From Cognatundibacterium oligocarboniphilum (GTDB lineage Bacteria; Pseudomonadota; Gammaproteobacteria; Burkholderiales; Burkholderiaceae_D): a DNA stretch of 64,000 nt. Position 1 is the first letter of the stretch. Every line of letters begins with the position of its first letter. Position numbers and translations under genes: made by a program. This document shows positions 14,537 to 21,405 of this stretch, piece by piece. The stretch spans positions 1 to 64,000 of the forward strand of contig NZ_JABXYJ010000002.1 of the NCBI RefSeq assembly GCF_013377855.1, read 5' to 3'. A model generated the notes under the pieces. The model saw nothing but the letters and a program-made list of their open reading frames with translations, did not search any database and was not told where the DNA came from.

Positions 14537-17500
14537 TCAGCGCTGCATGCTCTCCCAGATTTTTTGCAGGCGCTTGACCGAAACCGGCATCGGCGTCTTT
14601 AACTCCTGTGCAAACAGCGAAACGCGTAACTCTTCCAGCAGCCAGCGGTATTCCAGCATTTTCGGATCGATATCTGAACCAAAGCCTGCTTTGCGCGGTG
14701 TACGCTGCCAGCCCTGGGCTGCACTATTCCACTCTGCCTGTTGCCGCGCATCGCGTGCCGGATCAGCGCGCAGCTTGTCGATACGCACATTGATGGCTTT
14801 CAGATAGCGCGGGAAATGCGCAAGCTGGCTGAATTCATTTTCGGCGATGAAACGCTTGGTGATCAGCGACTGCAACTGACTTTGAATATCTGCCATAGCT
14901 TGCGGATGCGCTTTCAAGCCCTGCAATTTTTTAGGCAGGGTGTAATACTCCGCCAGGATCAAGCCCGCCAGGCGTGCGATTTCATTGGCCAGCAAATTCA
15001 GTCTGGCCTTACCTTCTTCACGCCGGATATTGAATTCACCGGAATTGGCAGGCAAAGGCGCCTGCAGACAGGCGCGTTCGATTGCGGTCTGGATAATCTG
15101 CTCACGCAATTCCTCCTGCGAACCCAGTGCCATGAATTGCATGCCCATTTGCTGTAAGCCCGGGATATTTTTTTCTAAAAACTTCACCTGCTCTTTGAGT
15201 TGCAAGGCGAACAGGCGACGCAGGCCGATACGATGATAGCGCGCGGCCTCATCCGGATCGTCAAATACCTCAATATGGCAATGCGTGAGCTTATCGACCA
15301 GCGCAGGATACCCGATCAGGGTTTGCTTGCCTTGCTGTACCTCCAGCAATTCCGGCAGGCTATCAAAGGTCCAGGCAGTCAGATTTTCTTGCTGATATAA
15401 GGCCGGTGCAGCGGACGGCGCGCTGCTTGCTGTGCCTTGCTTGCCGGATGGCGCCGCTGACTGCAGCGCTGGTGTGCCCGTACTCTTAACTGCGCCCTTA
15501 CCAGTACCAGCCACTGCTTGTGATGCGCCGCCTTCTAACAAAGCCAGTTTTTCGGCACTCGCCAACTTTTGAAAACTTTCGCGTGCCTGGGTGCCGAACT
15601 CTGCGCGTAAATGCGCGAGACTACGTCCCATCTCAAGCTGGCGGCCATGCTCATCCACCACCTTGAAATTCATGGTCAGGTGGGCGGGCAGTAATTCAAA
15701 TTTAAAATCGGTCGTTTTACACATCAAGCCGGTTTGCTCGCGGATATCAGCAATCACCGCATCCAGAAAATTACCTTTACCAAAATCAACGCGCTCACAG
15801 AAACCCGCCGCATAATCAGGCAAAGGCACGCAGTGGCGCCGGATTTTTTGCGGCAGTGACTTAATCAGCAGATGTACCTTTGCTTTCAGCATACCCGGCA
15901 CCAGCCATTCCGCACGATCAGCCGAGACCTGGTTCAGCGAAAACAAGGGTATCGTGAGCGTCACACCGTCGCGCGCACTGCCAGGTTCAAAGTGGTAACT
16001 GAGCTGCAAAGCGACACCCGATACCTGCATGGTTTTGGGGAACAGGTCGGTCGTAACGCCGGCCGCTTCATGCCGCATCAGCTCATCTTTATTCAGATAC
16101 AGCAGTTTGGGATTGCTGCTGGTCGCCTCTTTATGCCACTGTTCAAACAAGACCGCATTCCAGACATCGGCCGGGAGATGCTGATCGTAAAACGCGACGA
16201 TTAATTCATCATCCACCAGTACATCCAGCCTGCGCGATTTATGCTCCAGATTTTCAATTTCGCGCACCAGTTTCTGGTTGTAGGCAAAAAATGGTGCACG
16301 CGTATCGAATTCGCCACCGACCAGCGCTTCACGGATAAAGATGTCGCGCGCCTCAGCCGGGTGATACAGTCCATACTGAATGCGGCGCTGGCTGTAGACC
16401 ACCAGACCATACAGCGTGGCGCGCTCAAATGCACTGACTTGCCCGCTGCGCTTTTCCCAGCGCGGTTCACCATAGGATTTTTTGAGCAGATGACCACCGA
16501 TTTTTTCCAGCCATTCCGGCTGGATCTGCGCGATGCAGCGGCCATACAGACGCGAGGTATCGACCAGCTCAGCCGACATAATCCAGCGTCCGGCTTTTTT
16601 AGCCAGACTGGAACCGGGCCAGATATAAAAGCGGATGCCGCGTGCCCCCAGATAATGCGCCTCTTCGTCGGATTTATATCCTATATTGCCGAGCAAACCC
16701 GTCAGCAGCGACAGGTGTAATTGCTCATAAGTAGCCGGAGTTTCATTCAACCGCCAACCCTGCTCTTTAACTATGGTCAGCAATTGCGAATACACCTCGC
16801 GCCATTCGCGCAAGCGCATCTGGCTCAGGAAATGGGAGCGGCAATTATCCTGCAACTGGCGGTTAGTTTTTTTATGCTCAATCGCTTCTTCAAACCAGGT
16901 CCAGATTTTCAGATACGACAGGAATTCCGATTTTTCATCAGCAAATTTCTTATGCGCCTGATCCGCCGCCGCCTGCGCTTCCATAGGCCGGTCACGCGGG
17001 TCTTGCACCGATAAGGCGGAAGCGATGATCAACACCTCTTGCAAGGCCTGATGATCGCGCGCCGCCAGAATCATGCGCCCTACCCGCGGGTCCAGTGGCA
17101 GTTTCGCCAGTTGACGGCCCACCGGTGTGAGCTGATTACTTTCATCCATCGCGCCCAGCTCTTGCAATAACTGGTAGCCGTCTGCGATCGCGCGGCCCAA
17201 TGGCGGCTCGATGAATGGGAAAGTCTCCACATCGGTCAGACGCAACGACTTCATACGCAAGATGACTGCGGCCAGCGAGGAACGCAAAATCTCAGGCTCA
17301 GTAAATGGCGGACGCTGCTGAAAATCCTGCTCATCGAACAAGCGGATACACACACCTGCCGCAACCCGGCCGCAACGACCAGCACGCTGATTGGCAGCCG
17401 ACTGCGCAATCGCCTCGACCTGTAGCTGCTCGACTTTATTGCGGTAACTGTAGCGCTTGACACGTGCCAGTCCGGTATCGACCACGAAGCGTATGCCAGG

Positions 17501-18670
17501 CACCGTCAGCGAGGTTTCCGCCACATTGGTGGCTAATACGATACGGCGCGTATTCGACGTTTTAAACACCTTTTCCTGCTCTTGCGCCGAGAGTCGCGCA
17601 AACAGCGGCAGAATTTCCACATGCGGCGGATGATGCTTACGCAAGGCTTCTGCTGCATCACGGATCTCGCGCTCGCCGGGCAGAAACACCAACACGTCGC
17701 CGGAACCGATACGGCATAACTCATCGACCGCATCGGTGATCGCGGTCATCAGGTCACGCTCTTTATCCTTCTCTGACTGCTGCACCGGGCGATAACGTAA
17801 TTCAACCGGGTACAAACGCCCCGATACCTCGATCACTGGCGCGGGCCTGACTTCTTGCCCAGTCGCAGCCGGTTCAGCGAAATGCCGCGCAAAGCGCTGG
17901 GCATCGATGGTGGCGGAAGTGATGATGAGCTTCAGATCAGGACGCTTAGGCAGCAATTGCTTCAGATAGCCGAGCAGAAAGTCAATATTGAGGCTGCGTT
18001 CATGGGCCTCATCGATAATGATGGTGTCGTATTGACGCAGCAGCGGATCGGTCTGGGTTTCGGCCAGCAATATCCCATCCGTCATCAGCTTGACCGATGC
18101 GCCCTGACTCAGGGTATCGGTGAAGCGCACTTTAAAACCCACATGTTCACCCAGCGGCGAATTCAACTCTTGCGCTATACGCTTCGCGGTGGAGGAAGCT
18201 GCAATCCGGCGCGGCTGAGTGTGGCCGATCAGCCCATGCAAACCGCGCCCCAGTTCCAGACAGATTTTTGGTAACTGGGTAGTTTTACCGGAGCCAGTCT
18301 CACCACAAACGATAATGACCTGATGCTGGCGTAAAGCAGCCGCGATTTCTTCGCGCTTGCCGGAAACGGGCAATTCCTCCGGAAAGGTGATCGCAGGTAA
18401 AGGATTGCGGACAAGCGCAATGGGTTCCTTTTCACGTCCATTTTGCATGGTAGATTTTGACTGTCCCCCAGCCCCTCGCGGAACAGGTGACTGATCGCCA
18501 ACATAGGCGGAATCAGGGGCAGATTGTAATTTGGCCGGCTTTTTTTGTTGCTGATCCACCACTTGCGCCTGCTGGCGCAACTGCTGACGTAAATCACGCA
18601 GCCCGGACAAGCCCTCAGAGACAGGCACCGCTTTTGATGTATTTTTTTTAGTAGATGGGTTTGAAGACAT
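14537..18670 (-). CDS. hrpA: ATP-dependent RNA helicase HrpA (DEAH box)
   Basis: This large DEAH-box helicase acts in RNA or ribosome metabolism; the E. coli protein is linked to ribosome rescue. Counting from the ATG at 18670 (1377 aa), Walker A GETGSGKT is at 123-130 and DEAH at 220-223. SATI, the LATNVAETSLT segment and the QRAGRCGR motif VI follow. The OB-fold and DUF3418 regions fill the C-terminal half. A low-complexity Gly/Ser/Ala linker near residue 1060 (around GTGKGAVKSTGTPALQSA) interrupts the C-terminal part. The reading frame is open to 18712; no ribosome site separates the candidates, and 18670 gives a family-like N-terminus. Its stop is about 30 bases from the EamA start. Confidence 0.92.
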   Translation of the reverse strand: MSSNPSTKKNTSKAVPVSEGLSGLRDLRQQLRQQAQVVDQQQKKPAKLQSAPDSAYVGDQSPVPRGAGGQSKSTMQNGREKEPIALVRNPLPAITFPEELPVSGKREEIAAALRQHQVIIVCGETGSGKTTQLPKICLELGRGLHGLIGHTQPRRIAASSTAKRIAQELNSPLGEHVGFKVRFTDTLSQGASVKLMTDGILLAETQTDPLLRQYDTIIIDEAHERSLNIDFLLGYLKQLLPKRPDLKLIITSATIDAQRFARHFAEPAATGQEVRPAPVIEVSGRLYPVELRYRPVQQSEKDKERDLMTAITDAVDELCRIGSGDVLVFLPGEREIRDAAEALRKHHPPHVEILPLFARLSAQEQEKVFKTSNTRRIVLATNVAETSLTVPGIRFVVDTGLARVKRYSYRNKVEQLQVEAIAQSAANQRAGRCGRVAAGVCIRLFDEQDFQQRPPFTEPEILRSSLAAVILRMKSLRLTDVETFPFIEPPLGRAIADGYQLLQELGAMDESNQLTPVGRQLAKLPLDPRVGRMILAARDHQALQEVLIIASALSVQDPRDRPMEAQAAADQAHKKFADEKSEFLSYLKIWTWFEEAIEHKKTNRQLQDNCRSHFLSQMRLREWREVYSQLLTIVKEQGWRLNETPATYEQLHLSLLTGLLGNIGYKSDEEAHYLGARGIRFYIWPGSSLAKKAGRWIMSAELVDTSRLYGRCIAQIQPEWLEKIGGHLLKKSYGEPRWEKRSGQVSAFERATLYGLVVYSQRRIQYGLYHPAEARDIFIREALVGGEFDTRAPFFAYNQKLVREIENLEHKSRRLDVLVDDELIVAFYDQHLPADVWNAVLFEQWHKEATSSNPKLLYLNKDELMRHEAAGVTTDLFPKTMQVSGVALQLSYHFEPGSARDGVTLTIPLFSLNQVSADRAEWLVPGMLKAKVHLLIKSLPQKIRRHCVPLPDYAAGFCERVDFGKGNFLDAVIADIREQTGLMCKTTDFKFELLPAHLTMNFKVVDEHGRQLEMGRSLAHLRAEFGTQARESFQKLASAEKLALLEGGASQAVAGTGKGAVKSTGTPALQSAAPSGKQGTASSAPSAAPALYQQENLTAWTFDSLPELLEVQQGKQTLIGYPALVDKLTHCHIEVFDDPDEAARYHRIGLRRLFALQLKEQVKFLEKNIPGLQQMGMQFMALGSQEELREQIIQTAIERACLQAPLPANSGEFNIRREEGKARLNLLANEIARLAGLILAEYYTLPKKLQGLKAHPQAMADIQSQLQSLITKRFIAENEFSQLAHFPRYLKAINVRIDKLRADPARDARQQAEWNSAAQGWQRTPRKAGFGSDIDPKMLEYRWLLEELRVSLFAQELKTPMPVSVKRLQKIWESMQR

Positions 18671-18755
18671 AGCGGGACGCATTATCCCAGATTTCTGGCA
18701 TAACTTCCGCACAAGGAACTGACTTCTTCTAATCCAAACAATATAACTCTAATAC

Positions 18756-18781
18756 AACAACTTCTCAGTTGTTTATTTTTT
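18756..18781 (+). terminator. Possible attenuator or weak terminator before the lipoprotein gene
   Basis: AACAACT-TCTC-AGTTGTT forms a 7-bp stem with a 4-base loop, followed by TTATTTTTTG. No plus-strand gene ends here. It may be a remnant of inserted DNA or a leader attenuator for the gene at 18827. It is weak and unproven. Confidence 0.4.
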
Positions 18782-18826
18782 GTACAGCTATACTTCTCAG
18801 AGGAAAATCACAAAGTGGAGATAAAA

Positions 18827-19984
18827 ATGAAGGCATGGATATTACTATGCATCATCTGCCTGATATCAGGATGTGACACTATCATTCCTCTGAATATATC
18901 AAAATCTTTTCATGATGATCTCTTTACCCCTCCGGAAAAATCAATTCATGTTGAAGAAATTTTGGATGTCAGCAATGAAATGCAAGACTTTCTTTCCAAC
19001 CAGGTGAAATATTACATTCGTCGAGGCAATGATCCGAAGCGAGCATTATTTAACGCTATCACAAAAAGCGGAAAAATCTCCATTGAATATGATGCTGAGA
19101 TGACAAAAAATGCAGCAGAAACATTTAAAACCCAAACTGGTAATTGCCTGTCGCTGGTGCTAATGACTGCAGCATTAGCTAAAAAATTAGATATGTATGT
19201 TGAATATCAAAATGTCGAATTTGACGAGGAAGCATGGAAAAGAATGGGGGAAATATATTTTTCTGCAGGGCACGTCAATATCGTGCTTGGCAAGAAAGCG
19301 GCATTCGACAGATCCAGAATCGATCAGACAGATACGTTGATTATTGACTTCATTCCACCAGAACAAGCTCTCAGGCAACGCTCAAGCCAGATATCAGAAA
19401 AACGTGTCATTGCAATGTATTTAAATAACAGAGCCGCAGAATTATTATCAAAAGATCGTATTGATGATGCCTATTGGTATGCACGCGCAGCAATACTTCA
19501 GGATGTTAACTTCTTAACTTCATTCAATACCTTGGGCGTCATTTATAGAAGACATGGCGATCTGATCCTTGCAAAACAAATATTTACACAAATTACAAGG
19601 CAACATCCGGAAAATATCATTGCATTAAGTAACTTGCACGAAACACTAATGAAATTAGGCGATACAGACTCAGCGAATAAAATTGGATTAAAGCTAAAAA
19701 ATCTACAACCCTATGAACCATTTTATTTCTTAAACCAGGCAAAACTTGCAATTCAAAACAACGATTTGATTAATGCTAAAAATTTACTCCATGAAGAGAT
19801 AGTACACAATCCAAATAACGATGAATGCCACTTTTGGCTTGCTATCGTCCATTATCGACTAGGAGAGTTTCAGGAAACGGCTGAACAGCTCATGTTAGCG
19901 AGAAACAATAGCATTACCCGCAAAAACTATGACTTATATAGTGCGAAACTGAATTATTTAAATAGTCAATTTTTAATAAAATAA
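18827..19984 (+). CDS. Lipoprotein with transglutaminase-like and TPR domains
   Basis: This is a 385-residue predicted lipoprotein. Its lipobox is LISGC, with Cys16 as the acyl-modified residue. Residues about 90-180 look like a bacterial transglutaminase/cysteine-protease fold: Cys107 in TGNCLS, His149 in GHVNIV and Asp174 in IIDF make a plausible triad. From about 185 to the end the protein consists of TPR-like helical repeats (NRAAELLSKDRIDDAYWYA, FNTLGVIYRRHGDL and others). GGAG lies 6 bases before the ATG at 18827; a GTG at 18815 is also in frame. The gene is clearly more AT-rich than its neighbours and sits between hrpA and argA, which are usually adjacent in Burkholderiales. Function is unknown; peptide cross-linking or proteolysis at the envelope is inference. 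Confidence 0.75.
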   Translation: MKAWILLCIICLISGCDTIIPLNISKSFHDDLFTPPEKSIHVEEILDVSNEMQDFLSNQVKYYIRRGNDPKRALFNAITKSGKISIEYDAEMTKNAAETFKTQTGNCLSLVLMTAALAKKLDMYVEYQNVEFDEEAWKRMGEIYFSAGHVNIVLGKKAAFDRSRIDQTDTLIIDFIPPEQALRQRSSQISEKRVIAMYLNNRAAELLSKDRIDDAYWYARAAILQDVNFLTSFNTLGVIYRRHGDLILAKQIFTQITRQHPENIIALSNLHETLMKLGDTDSANKIGLKLKNLQPYEPFYFLNQAKLAIQNNDLINAKNLLHEEIVHNPNNDECHFWLAIVHYRLGEFQETAEQLMLARNNSITRKNYDLYSAKLNYLNSQFLIK

Positions 19985-20034
19985 CAAATATATTTTTCCG
20001 TAAAAGAAAATTTTCAATTCTTTTTTAATGATCG

Positions 20035-20054
20035 TCTATACGCTAGCATATAGA
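20035..20054. promoter_or_regulatory. Near-palindrome upstream of argA
   Basis: TCTATACGCTAGCATATAGA is a 20-bp dyad with one mismatched pair, about 40 bases before argA. It lies just upstream of, or overlapping, the expected -35 region, and could be an operator. It does not resemble an ARG box. Confidence 0.35.
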
Positions 20055-20082
20055 TAAGTTTTTAAAAGAATCTGTCTCCGCT

Positions 20083-20088
20083 TATAAT
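20083..20088 (+). promoter_or_regulatory. argA -10 box placed for a leaderless transcript
   Basis: A perfect TATAAT ends 6 bases before the argA ATG at 20095, so transcription would begin at or next to the start codon. The -35 region is only AT-rich, and no Shine-Dalgarno sequence is present. Confidence 0.5.
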
Positions 20089-20094
20089 TTACGG

Positions 20095-21405
20095 ATGGAA
20101 AATCCCATTCAATTCGTACAATGGCTGCGCTCAGTCGCACCTTACATTCATGCATTCCGTGGCAAAACCTTTGTTGTCGCCTTCCCTGGCGAGCTGGTGA
20201 TGGCGGGCGCTTTGCCTGTACTCGCGCAGGATCTGTCCCTGTTGCATGCACTGGGTATCAAGATTGTGATCGTTCACGGCTCCCGGCCACAAGTGGCCGA
20301 GCAACTTGCGCTGCGTAATGTCGAGGGTCGCTTCCACAACGGTATCCGCATTACTGATACCGCAGCCCTGGAATGCTCCAAAGAAGCCGCTGGCGAGTTA
20401 CGCCTTGATATCGAAGCCGCGTTCAGTCAGGGCTTGCCAAATACGCCGATGGCGCATTCGGCAATACGGATTATTTCCGGAAATTTTGTGACTGCAAAAC
20501 CGATTGGCATTGTCAATGGCATTGACTTTGGTCTGACTGGTACTGCGCGCAAAGTGGCCTATGACACCATTGACAGAATTCTGGAAGCAGGGAACCTCGT
20601 GTTACTGGGACCGCTGGGGTTCTCCCCGACGGGAGAAGCATTTAATCTGACGATGGAAGACGTGGCAGTTTCCACCGCCACTGCATTACGTGCCGATAAG
20701 CTGATATTCATCACAGAAACTCCCATGATGGCAGATCAGGATGGCGATGAAATCCGCGAGCTGTCATTTATGCAGGCCGAACAGGAATTAAATGCCGGTT
20801 ATTTGCCACCGGACTCCGCGTTCTATCTGGAACATGCCGTCAAGGCTTCCCGCGGCGGGGTTGGACGCATTCACATCGTGCCATACAAAATGGACGGTTC
20901 AGCCTTGCTGGAACTGTTCACGCACGATGGCGTCGGCACCATGGTGACATCGGAAAATCTGGAGAGTCTGCGCGAGGCCACGATTGAAGACGTCGGTGGC
21001 ATCATTAAGCTCATAGAACCATTAGAAGCCGATGGCACGCTGGTCAAGCGCGGACGTGAACTGATTGAGCGCGAAATCAACTACTTCTCGGTGATTGAGC
21101 ATGACGGGGTGATTTTTGGCTGTGCCGCACTGTATCCTTTCCCGTTCGACAAAATGGCAGAAATGGCCTGCCTCACCGTCAATCCTGACGTACAGAGCCA
21201 GGGAGATGGCGAGCGCATACTGAAACACATGGAAAAACGCGCACGGCGCGCCGGTTTTCACTCGCTGTTTGTGCTGACCACCCGCACCGAGCACTGGTTC
21301 CTGAAGCGGGGCTTCGTCAAAGCCAGCGTTGACGACCTGCCTAAAGACCGCCAAAAAATGTACAACTGGCAACGCAAATCTCTGGTTCTGATCAAGCAGC
21401 TCTGA
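20095..21405 (+). CDS. argA: Amino-acid N-acetyltransferase (N-acetylglutamate synthase)
   Basis: This enzyme catalyses the first step of arginine biosynthesis, acetylating glutamate with acetyl-CoA. Residues about 20-270 form the amino-acid-kinase domain (FRGKTFVVAFPGEL and VHGSRPQV). Residues about 290-436 are the GNAT acetyltransferase domain (IEHDGVIFGCAALYP, NPDVQSQGDGERIL). At 436 aa it matches the classical bifunctional-architecture ArgA. The GNAT acetyl-CoA loop usually reads Q/RxxGxG; here it is QSQGDG, which fits. The start is well supported by alignment with the family, but lacks a ribosome site. It is followed by yggX, a common order in this lineage. Confidence 0.94.
   Translation: MENPIQFVQWLRSVAPYIHAFRGKTFVVAFPGELVMAGALPVLAQDLSLLHALGIKIVIVHGSRPQVAEQLALRNVEGRFHNGIRITDTAALECSKEAAGELRLDIEAAFSQGLPNTPMAHSAIRIISGNFVTAKPIGIVNGIDFGLTGTARKVAYDTIDRILEAGNLVLLGPLGFSPTGEAFNLTMEDVAVSTATALRADKLIFITETPMMADQDGDEIRELSFMQAEQELNAGYLPPDSAFYLEHAVKASRGGVGRIHIVPYKMDGSALLELFTHDGVGTMVTSENLESLREATIEDVGGIIKLIEPLEADGTLVKRGRELIEREINYFSVIEHDGVIFGCAALYPFPFDKMAEMACLTVNPDVQSQGDGERILKHMEKRARRAGFHSLFVLTTRTEHWFLKRGFVKASVDDLPKDRQKMYNWQRKSLVLIKQL

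What the first reader, a model, noticed from the sequence alone, without database searches (positions are those of the whole stretch)
18721..20034. AT-rich lipoprotein with a transglutaminase-like triad and TPR tail inserted between hrpA and argA
Seen: a lipobox (Cys16), a candidate Cys107-His149-Asp174 triad and a TPR-rich second half; the gene and its flanks are visibly more AT-rich than the neighbours. Known: hrpA, argA and yggX are commonly adjacent in Burkholderiales. Inferred: this gene was acquired later and acts at the outer membrane or periplasm as a peptidase, cross-linker or amidase with unknown partners.
Basis: partly seen in the sequence, partly recalled or inferred. Interest (0 to 1): 0.55.

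Follow-up and report, generated by a model that had tools for sequence, protein, structure and literature searches.

The report
Swapped envelope lipoprotein with transglutaminase-like domain
Between two housekeeping genes of a bacterium sits a single gene for a membrane-anchored protein that looks like a thiol protease joined to a docking arm, and this one gene is quite unlike that of the nearest relative while the DNA around it is about 91% identical.

Summary
Observation confirmed. The gene is 18827-19984 (+), 385 aa: lipobox Cys16, Cys107/His149/Asp174, then TPR repeats; it is the most AT-rich of 44 ORFs examined. The triad is invariant in 65 of 65 aligned family members, and the N-domain belongs to the transglutaminase-like superfamily (profile-profile 93%; two members exceed Pfam's PF01841 cut-off, the window copy does not). 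Triad geometry could not be shown. Interpretation partly right: the gene was inserted into the short divergent hrpA/argA promoter, but within the genus; 19 of 40 readable genomes carry it there and the slot copies form one clade. What looks recent is the allele: against the nearest held genome the 64 kb are collinear at 90-92% except 18695-20071, where only a homologous slot gene (52% aa) remains, so the cassette was exchanged or tandem copies were lost reciprocally. Close pairs show purifying selection. In six loci of another family an M28 peptidase gene follows directly, so I favour an envelope peptide hydrolase whose TPR arm recruits substrate; substrate and partners are unknown. An unnamed lipoprotein-TGL-TPR family in an exchangeable one-gene slot: interesting, not categorically new.

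The parts
18827..19984 (+). coding sequence of the lipoprotein (385 aa), called LP here
   Evidence: one match in the genome
18827..18874 (+). signal peptide and lipobox ending in Cys16 (LISGC); Asp follows the Cys
   Evidence: Cys16 invariant in 29 of 29; Asp at +2 in 1 of 68 copies
18965..19396 (+). transglutaminase-like domain, about residues 47-190
   Evidence: hhalign against 30 PF01841 domains 93%; PF01841 matched by 36 of 65 members at E 0.01
19145..19147 (+). Cys107 codon, predicted nucleophile
   Evidence: aligned on the invariant Cys of the PF01841 set; invariant 65 of 65
19271..19273 (+). His149 codon
   Evidence: invariant 65 of 65; first residue of a predicted strand; not paired with the PF01841 His by hhalign
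19346..19348 (+). Asp174 codon
   Evidence: aligned on the invariant Asp of the PF01841 set; invariant 65 of 65
19397..19978 (+). TPR region, residues 191-384, helical hairpins
18695..20071 (.). segment replaced relative to the nearest held genome (1377 versus 1374 bases) between flanks of about 92% identity
18680..18694 (.). left border of the cassette, shared by the 19 occupied slots and 4 gene-less long spacers; probably holds the hrpA promoter -10 (read leftwards; inference)
20072..20088 (.). right border with the argA promoter-like TATAAT at 20083-20088
14537..18670 (-). hrpA, left flank (start taken at 18670; the mechanical ORF starts at 18712)
20095..21405 (+). argA, right flank

Best explanation
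LP is a membrane-anchored periplasmic thiol enzyme of the transglutaminase-like superfamily (predicted Cys107-His149-Asp174), fused to a TPR arm that most likely captures the protein it acts on; the likeliest reaction is hydrolysis of a peptide or amide bond in an envelope or surface protein. Its gene behaves as a one-gene cassette. It entered the short divergent hrpA/argA promoter in the history of this genus, leaving each neighbour a promoter-like box of its own, and has since been kept, tandemly duplicated, lost and exchanged between species. The window carries an allele unlike that of its nearest relative. SHOWN by computation: domain make-up, invariant residues, superfamily membership of the family, one clade of slot copies, sharp boundaries of the replaced segment. 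INFERRED: catalysis, hydrolysis rather than cross-linking, TPR as substrate receptor, exchange by homologous recombination through the flanks.
For: Triad invariant in 65 of 65 members; Asn106, Ser109, Trp137, Val150, Asn151 and Phe175 in 90% or more. PF01841 matched by 36 of 65 members at E 0.01 or better (best 3.6e-7); of 7 members scanned singly, 2 exceed the cut-off of 23 bits (L134 30.9 over profile positions 6-107 of 108; L132 26.3). hhalign 93%, E 3e-7, Cys and Asp columns paired. Predicted order helix from Cys107, strand from His149, strand just before Asp174 fits the superfamily (fold order recalled). In 6 of 26 loci held outside the window's order (of 38 matches there) an M28 peptidase gene lies directly downstream: similarity search, Pfam M28 for one of them, overlapping or within 1 base by mechanical ORF starts in the five read in full. 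Slot. dN/dS 0.05-0.125 in six pairs means a constrained gene.
Against: The window protein itself does not reach PF01841. The N-domain profile finds no PDB chain even at E 10, and the 50 Foldseek matches listed for the whole model are, by their titles and match lengths, TPR or similar repeat proteins. The model of the domain is too poor to test geometry. hhalign did not pair the two His columns; His149 lies between Cys and Asp in the same order. No neighbour is common to the Burkholderiales-side loci: those shared by 2-4 loci of different genus codes are mostly common genes such as chemotaxis receptors, Cache proteins and a DNA glycosylase, so the M28 link rests on one other family (code f53), and there on 6 of 13 genomes. 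Reciprocal loss of tandem copies explains the swap of this pair as well as recombination does.
Confidence: 0.6

Rival explanations
1. The enzyme cross-links or amidates (true transglutaminase, deamidase or amidase, for example on peptidoglycan-linked peptides) rather than cutting proteins.
For: The superfamily holds enzymes of several reactions (passages of PMC10318531, and of PMC4241560); the sequence does not distinguish them.
Against: Direct adjacency to an M28 peptidase gene in 6 of 26 loci leans to peptide breakdown; no peptidoglycan-binding family among the Pfam matches listed for the window protein or in the 25 families shown of 54 for the 29 members.
Confidence: 0.25
2. The domain is a catalytically dead binding module like SirB1-type Transglut_core2, and the protein is only a TPR adaptor.
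For: SirB1-type proteins share the helix region (hhalign 44%) and have Pro at the place of the Cys in 7 of 7. TPR lipoproteins NlpI and LbcA work with separate proteases (abstract starts in the listing).
Against: Cys, His and Asp are each invariant in 65 of 65, unexpected for a dead enzyme.
Confidence: 0.1
3. The swap is not horizontal: the common ancestor of the window species and G029 had two tandem LP copies and each lineage kept a different one.
For: Tandem slot copies exist in 4 of 19 occupied genomes (G001, G012, G062, G065). Window and G029 copies are each other's nearest in the tree (SH-aLRT 90).
Against: GC3 of LP is 0.34 (window) and 0.46 (G029) against 0.60 and 0.59 in argA of the same genomes, which suggests foreign make-up. 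Elsewhere LP seems to have moved: G033 and G004 share LP at dS 0.49 while argA is at 1.55.
Confidence: 0.35
4. The gene simply evolves very fast in place.
For: LP is less alike than ArgA in every pair printed (the 40 pairs closest in ArgA and those of G000 and G029); some pairs with ArgA at 98.4-98.9% have LP at only 69-75%.
Against: Non-coding flanks inside the borders fall to about 40% identity at once; the other 12 pairs with ArgA at 98.4% or more keep LP at 69-99%, against 52% here; dN/dS stays at or below 0.125 in the six pairs where it could be computed.
Confidence: 0.03

Closest known systems
Transglut_core, PF01841 (TgpA-like and other bacterial transglutaminase-like domains)
   Same: Cys and Asp columns align, order Cys-His-Asp, matched by 36 of 65 members
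   Different: Window copy below reporting; lipoprotein with C-terminal TPR; 'GNCLS...HVN...DF' in place of 'GFCEH...HAW...DP'
SirB1 / Transglut_core2, PF13369
   Same: Transglutaminase-like by Pfam's name; similar helix region. The name SirB1 and a following TPR part in it are recalled, not tested
   Different: Pro where LP has the Cys, 7 of 7; weak profile match
BTLCP cysteine proteinases LapG and HvyA, PF06035
   Same: Transglutaminase-like cysteine proteinases acting on adhesins or capsulation (abstract starts; passages of PMC4241560)
   Different: PF06035 is not among the 5 families matched by LP N-domains at E 0.01; LP is a lipoprotein with TPR
TPR lipoprotein adaptors NlpI and LbcA
   Same: Lipoprotein partners of envelope proteases or hydrolases (abstract starts); TPR make-up recalled
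   Different: They work with a separate protease; LP carries an enzyme-like domain in the same chain
PA2778 family cysteine peptidase, NF033920
   Same: Weak NCBIfam match through the TPR part (20.2 bits against a cut-off of 150); peptidase plus TPR by name and match position
   Different: Match does not touch the N-domain; C39-type by its name

Membership tests
Transglutaminase-like superfamily (PF01841) | Profile similarity over the core | tested here: met
   Family level: 36 of 65 members at E 0.01 or better; 2 of 7 scanned singly over the cut-off of 23 bits (L134 30.9, L132 26.3); hhalign 93%. The window copy alone does not match
Transglutaminase-like superfamily (PF01841) | Cys-His-Asp in order, conserved | tested here: met
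   65 of 65; Cys and Asp columns paired, His not paired by the aligner
Transglutaminase-like superfamily (PF01841) | Papain-like fold with the triad in contact | tested here: inconclusive
   Secondary structure order fits, pLDDT under 50 in parts
Transglutaminase-like superfamily (PF01841) | Catalytic activity | not testable with these tools
   -
Bacterial lipoprotein | Signal peptide with lipobox Cys | tested here: met
   Cys16 invariant 29 of 29; sequence LISGC; no signal-peptide program was run
Bacterial lipoprotein | Outer-membrane sorting | tested here: inconclusive
   Asp at +2 in the window copy only, 1 of 68; rule recalled from E. coli
BTLCP / LapG (PF06035) | Match to PF06035 | tested here: not met
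   0 of 65 members at E 0.01
SirB1 / PF13369 | Match to PF13369 over its cut-off | tested here: not met
   2 of 65 at E 0.01; the best, L134, 20.9 bits against 23.5
TPR protein | TPR models over curated cut-off | tested here: met
   TPR_2 35.6/27, TPR_19 34.6/25, TPR_17 28.6/24.4 bits
Known anti-phage defence protein (PADLOC) | Match to a PADLOC model | tested here: not met
   0 of 4 proteins at E 0.01

The most novel reading that the evidence does not exclude
LP is an interchangeable cell-surface processing enzyme: a one-gene slot in a housekeeping promoter through which related species trade, duplicate and discard versions of a lipoprotein protease, because phages, toxins or competitors reward having a different version from one's neighbours.
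Probability: 0.15. Interest if true: 0.7.

Novelty: new variant of a known kind. Interest (0 to 1): 0.45.

Why it matters
For the window protein the Pfam and NCBIfam matches of note are TPR models only, and the one plasmid relative is annotated 'tetratricopeptide repeat protein', so an invariant thiol-enzyme triad found in 32 of 398 sampled genomes of the phylum goes unnamed there. It offers a compact enzyme-plus-adaptor version of what CtpA-LbcA do with separate proteins, and a natural experiment: two species about 91% identical and collinear across 64 kb, with one replaced segment in that stretch, and it is an envelope gene.

Tried and rejected
Prophage or plasmid carriage: the pattern-based scan of 2.9 million viral contigs found 42 stretches, none encoding a relative; one record matched among 72,556 plasmids (Eleftheria). 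PADLOC: no match in 4 proteins. NCBIfam on 65 N-domains: two single chance-level matches. PDB profile search of the N-domain: nothing to E 10. Fold search: dominated by TPR and other repeat proteins, so it says nothing about the N-domain. A weak ABHD18 match (E 0.0024 in 1 of 65) is taken as chance. Diversifying selection: not seen in six pairs (dN/dS 0.05-0.125; two further pairs, the window pair among them, were saturated). A shared partner on the Burkholderiales side: in 26 loci examined, chemotaxis receptors lay within 4 kb in three (L031, L098, L105) and Cache proteins in three (L100, L105, L106), a DNA glycosylase family in three (L031, L098, L099); none is general. The 5-base ATTAT repeat at the two borders of many occupied slots may be a target duplication or merely two copies of a promoter -10; I cannot tell which, and in the window the right copy is not exact.

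Rows and counts: the 84 rows include 6 genes fetched twice and 3 off-target TPR rows of L031, so I quote the 65 N-domains, which are 65 of the 75 distinct ones found. The tree (76 rows, quick LG+G4) still contains those 3 long-branch rows and lacks the copy of G063. The +2 residue count left out 8 loci, two of which (L156, L157) were genuine second copies. In the genus, 3 of 43 genomes (G007, G024, G028) have no full-length ArgA and are not in the slot counts. In 3 of the 19 occupied genomes (G001, G012, G065) hrpA itself lay outside the stretch held and was placed by the border sequence only. The count of slot changes used 38 of the 40 genomes. One search kept alignment pieces over 200 bases.

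Literature: five searches listed, by title and abstract start, no paper on a transglutaminase-like TPR lipoprotein; they cover open-licence PubMed Central only. I saw passages of PMC4241560 and PMC10318531 and only listings or abstract starts of the others.

Full report
WHAT IS THERE. The gene LP runs from 18827 to 19984 on the + strand and encodes 385 aa. It starts with a lipoprotein signal (LISGC, Cys16), continues with a domain of about 145 residues holding Cys107, His149 and Asp174, and ends with TPR repeats. Among 44 non-overlapping ORFs of at least 150 aa in the window it is the most AT-rich (GC 0.364, GC3 0.339 against medians of 0.527 and 0.562). The genome search finds one copy.

THE ENZYME-LIKE DOMAIN. 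Cys107, His149 and Asp174 are invariant in 29 of 29 close members and in 65 of 65 N-domains from several genera and families. The window protein alone does not match a transglutaminase profile, but 36 of 65 family members match PF01841 at E 0.01 or better, and 2 of 7 scanned singly exceed the curated cut-off of 23 bits (L134 30.9, profile positions 6-107 of 108; L132 26.3). Profile against profile, with 30 PF01841 domains collected for the purpose, gives 93% probability and E 3e-7. The Cys and Asp columns are paired; the aligner did not pair the two His columns. The narrower 29-member full-length profile gives only 20%. SirB1-type domains match less (44%) and have Pro in place of the Cys. AlphaFold with two sequences gives TPR hairpins of good confidence but pLDDT under 50 in parts of the N-domain. 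Its order (helix from Cys107, strand from His149, strand ending before Asp174) fits the superfamily, but contact of the three residues is not shown. The 50 Foldseek matches listed are TPR or similar repeat proteins by their titles.

DISTRIBUTION AND NEIGHBOURS. Relatives at E 1e-20 or better occur in 13 of 300 genomes drawn from the order (8 of 134 genera) and in 32 of 398 drawn from the phylum (22 of 213 genera). On the window's side of the class no neighbour is general: those shared by 2-4 loci of different genus codes are mostly common genes such as chemotaxis receptors, Cache proteins and a methylpurine-DNA glycosylase, so the gene seems to stand alone. In one family of another order of the same class (code f53; unnamed), 6 of the 13 genomes with the gene (6 of the 26 loci held as L112-L137, from 38 matches) have an M28 peptidase gene directly downstream on the same strand. 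One was identified as M28 by Pfam and the other five by 35-44% identity to it. In the five such loci read in full the ORFs overlap or lie within one base by mechanical starts. Four of the six M28 proteins have a lipobox-like Cys and the other two a hydrophobic start (my reading of the N-termini printed). This is the only suggestive functional context found, and it points to peptide breakdown at the envelope.

THE SLOT. Of 43 genus genomes, 40 have a full argA whose upstream region can be read. 19 hold LP next to argA on the hrpA side, 17 have a short spacer (23-24 bases between the hrpA and argA start codons, with one palindromic ATTATAAT; my reading), and 4 (G005, G013, G064, G066) have a spacer of about 190-255 bases without LP. 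The 19 occupied slots and the 4 long spacers share the left border ATTATCCCAGATTT (within two substitutions) just beyond the hrpA start, and each ends in a TATAAT box before argA. In other genera of the family, hrpA lies beside argA without LP in 6 of 7 genomes, and 4 of the 7 carry LP, at other places, so the slot insertion most likely arose in this genus. The 22 slot copies in the tree (18 of the 19 genomes) form one clade, apart from genus copies at other places (SH-aLRT 96). The fewest changes of slot state on the argA tree are 6 (38 genomes counted), so the gene was gained or lost repeatedly; the 4 long spacers look like scars of loss (inference).

THE SWAP. The nearest held genome, G029, is collinear with the whole 64-kb window at 89.6-91.8% identity, with one replaced segment: 18695-20071, 1377 bases against 1374 (profile). 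Two further differences are extra stretches in G029 of about 366 and 149 bases. Inside the replaced segment the non-coding parts fall to about 40%, and LP is at 52% aa while ArgA is at 99.3%. The other 12 genus pairs with ArgA at 98.4% or more keep LP at 69-99%, and dN/dS is 0.05-0.125 in six pairs, so fast evolution in place does not explain it well. Exchange is suggested independently by G033 and G004: LP dS 0.49 against ArgA dS 1.55, with identity raised over the cassette and the start of argA, while G033's sister G027 has the short empty spacer. For the window pair, reciprocal loss of tandem copies remains possible: tandem copies occur in 4 of 19 occupied genomes, and the two alleles are each other's nearest (SH-aLRT 90).

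HOW IT PROBABLY WORKS. Export and lipidation place the protein on a membrane facing the periplasm; the TPR arm holds a partner or substrate; the Cys-His-Asp domain cuts a peptide or amide bond. The signal and domain order are read from sequence; catalysis, hydrolysis and recruitment are inferred. LapG and HvyA, transglutaminase-like cysteine proteinases of another Pfam family, act on adhesins and on capsulation (abstract starts; passages of PMC4241560), which makes a surface structure a reasonable target. Which membrane is open: the window copy alone of 68 has Asp after the lipid Cys.

VERDICT. A real, conserved, unnamed family within a known superfamily, sitting in an exchangeable single-gene slot.

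Noticed in passing
L114, L118, L120, L125, L126, L128: M28 peptidase gene directly downstream of LP in six genomes of one family; a phosphoribosyltransferase gene follows in four of them (L118, L120, L126, L128).
   Followed up: partly
L109:9522-10661, L110:8837-10009, L111:9164-10330: A second, far-diverged LP subfamily (24-27% identity to the window copy) at another place in four genus genomes (G002, G023, G030, G032; three fetched) that also carry an ordinary LP copy.
   Followed up: partly
window 18668-18694 and 20081-20095: In genomes without LP, hrpA and argA share one palindromic ATTATAAT box in a spacer of about 24 bases; with LP each gene has a box of its own.
   Followed up: partly
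window 14537-18712: The mechanical hrpA ORF starts at a GTG at 18712; conservation points to the ATG at 18670 as the start.
   Followed up: no
window about 42300 and 57124: The nearest genome G029 has extra stretches of about 366 and 149 bases here.
   Followed up: no
L010, L011, L070, L072: Tandem LP copies in the slot in G012, G001, G062 and G065; in G001, G012 and G062 the two copies belong to different branches of the slot clade.
   Followed up: partly
L105:9828-11396, L105:11521-12006, L106:4584-5075, L100:12177-12635, L031:2992-4731, L098:5889-7613: Chemotaxis receptor or Cache-domain genes within 4 kb of LP at places other than the slot, in more than one genus code; such genes are common, so this may be chance.
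   Followed up: partly
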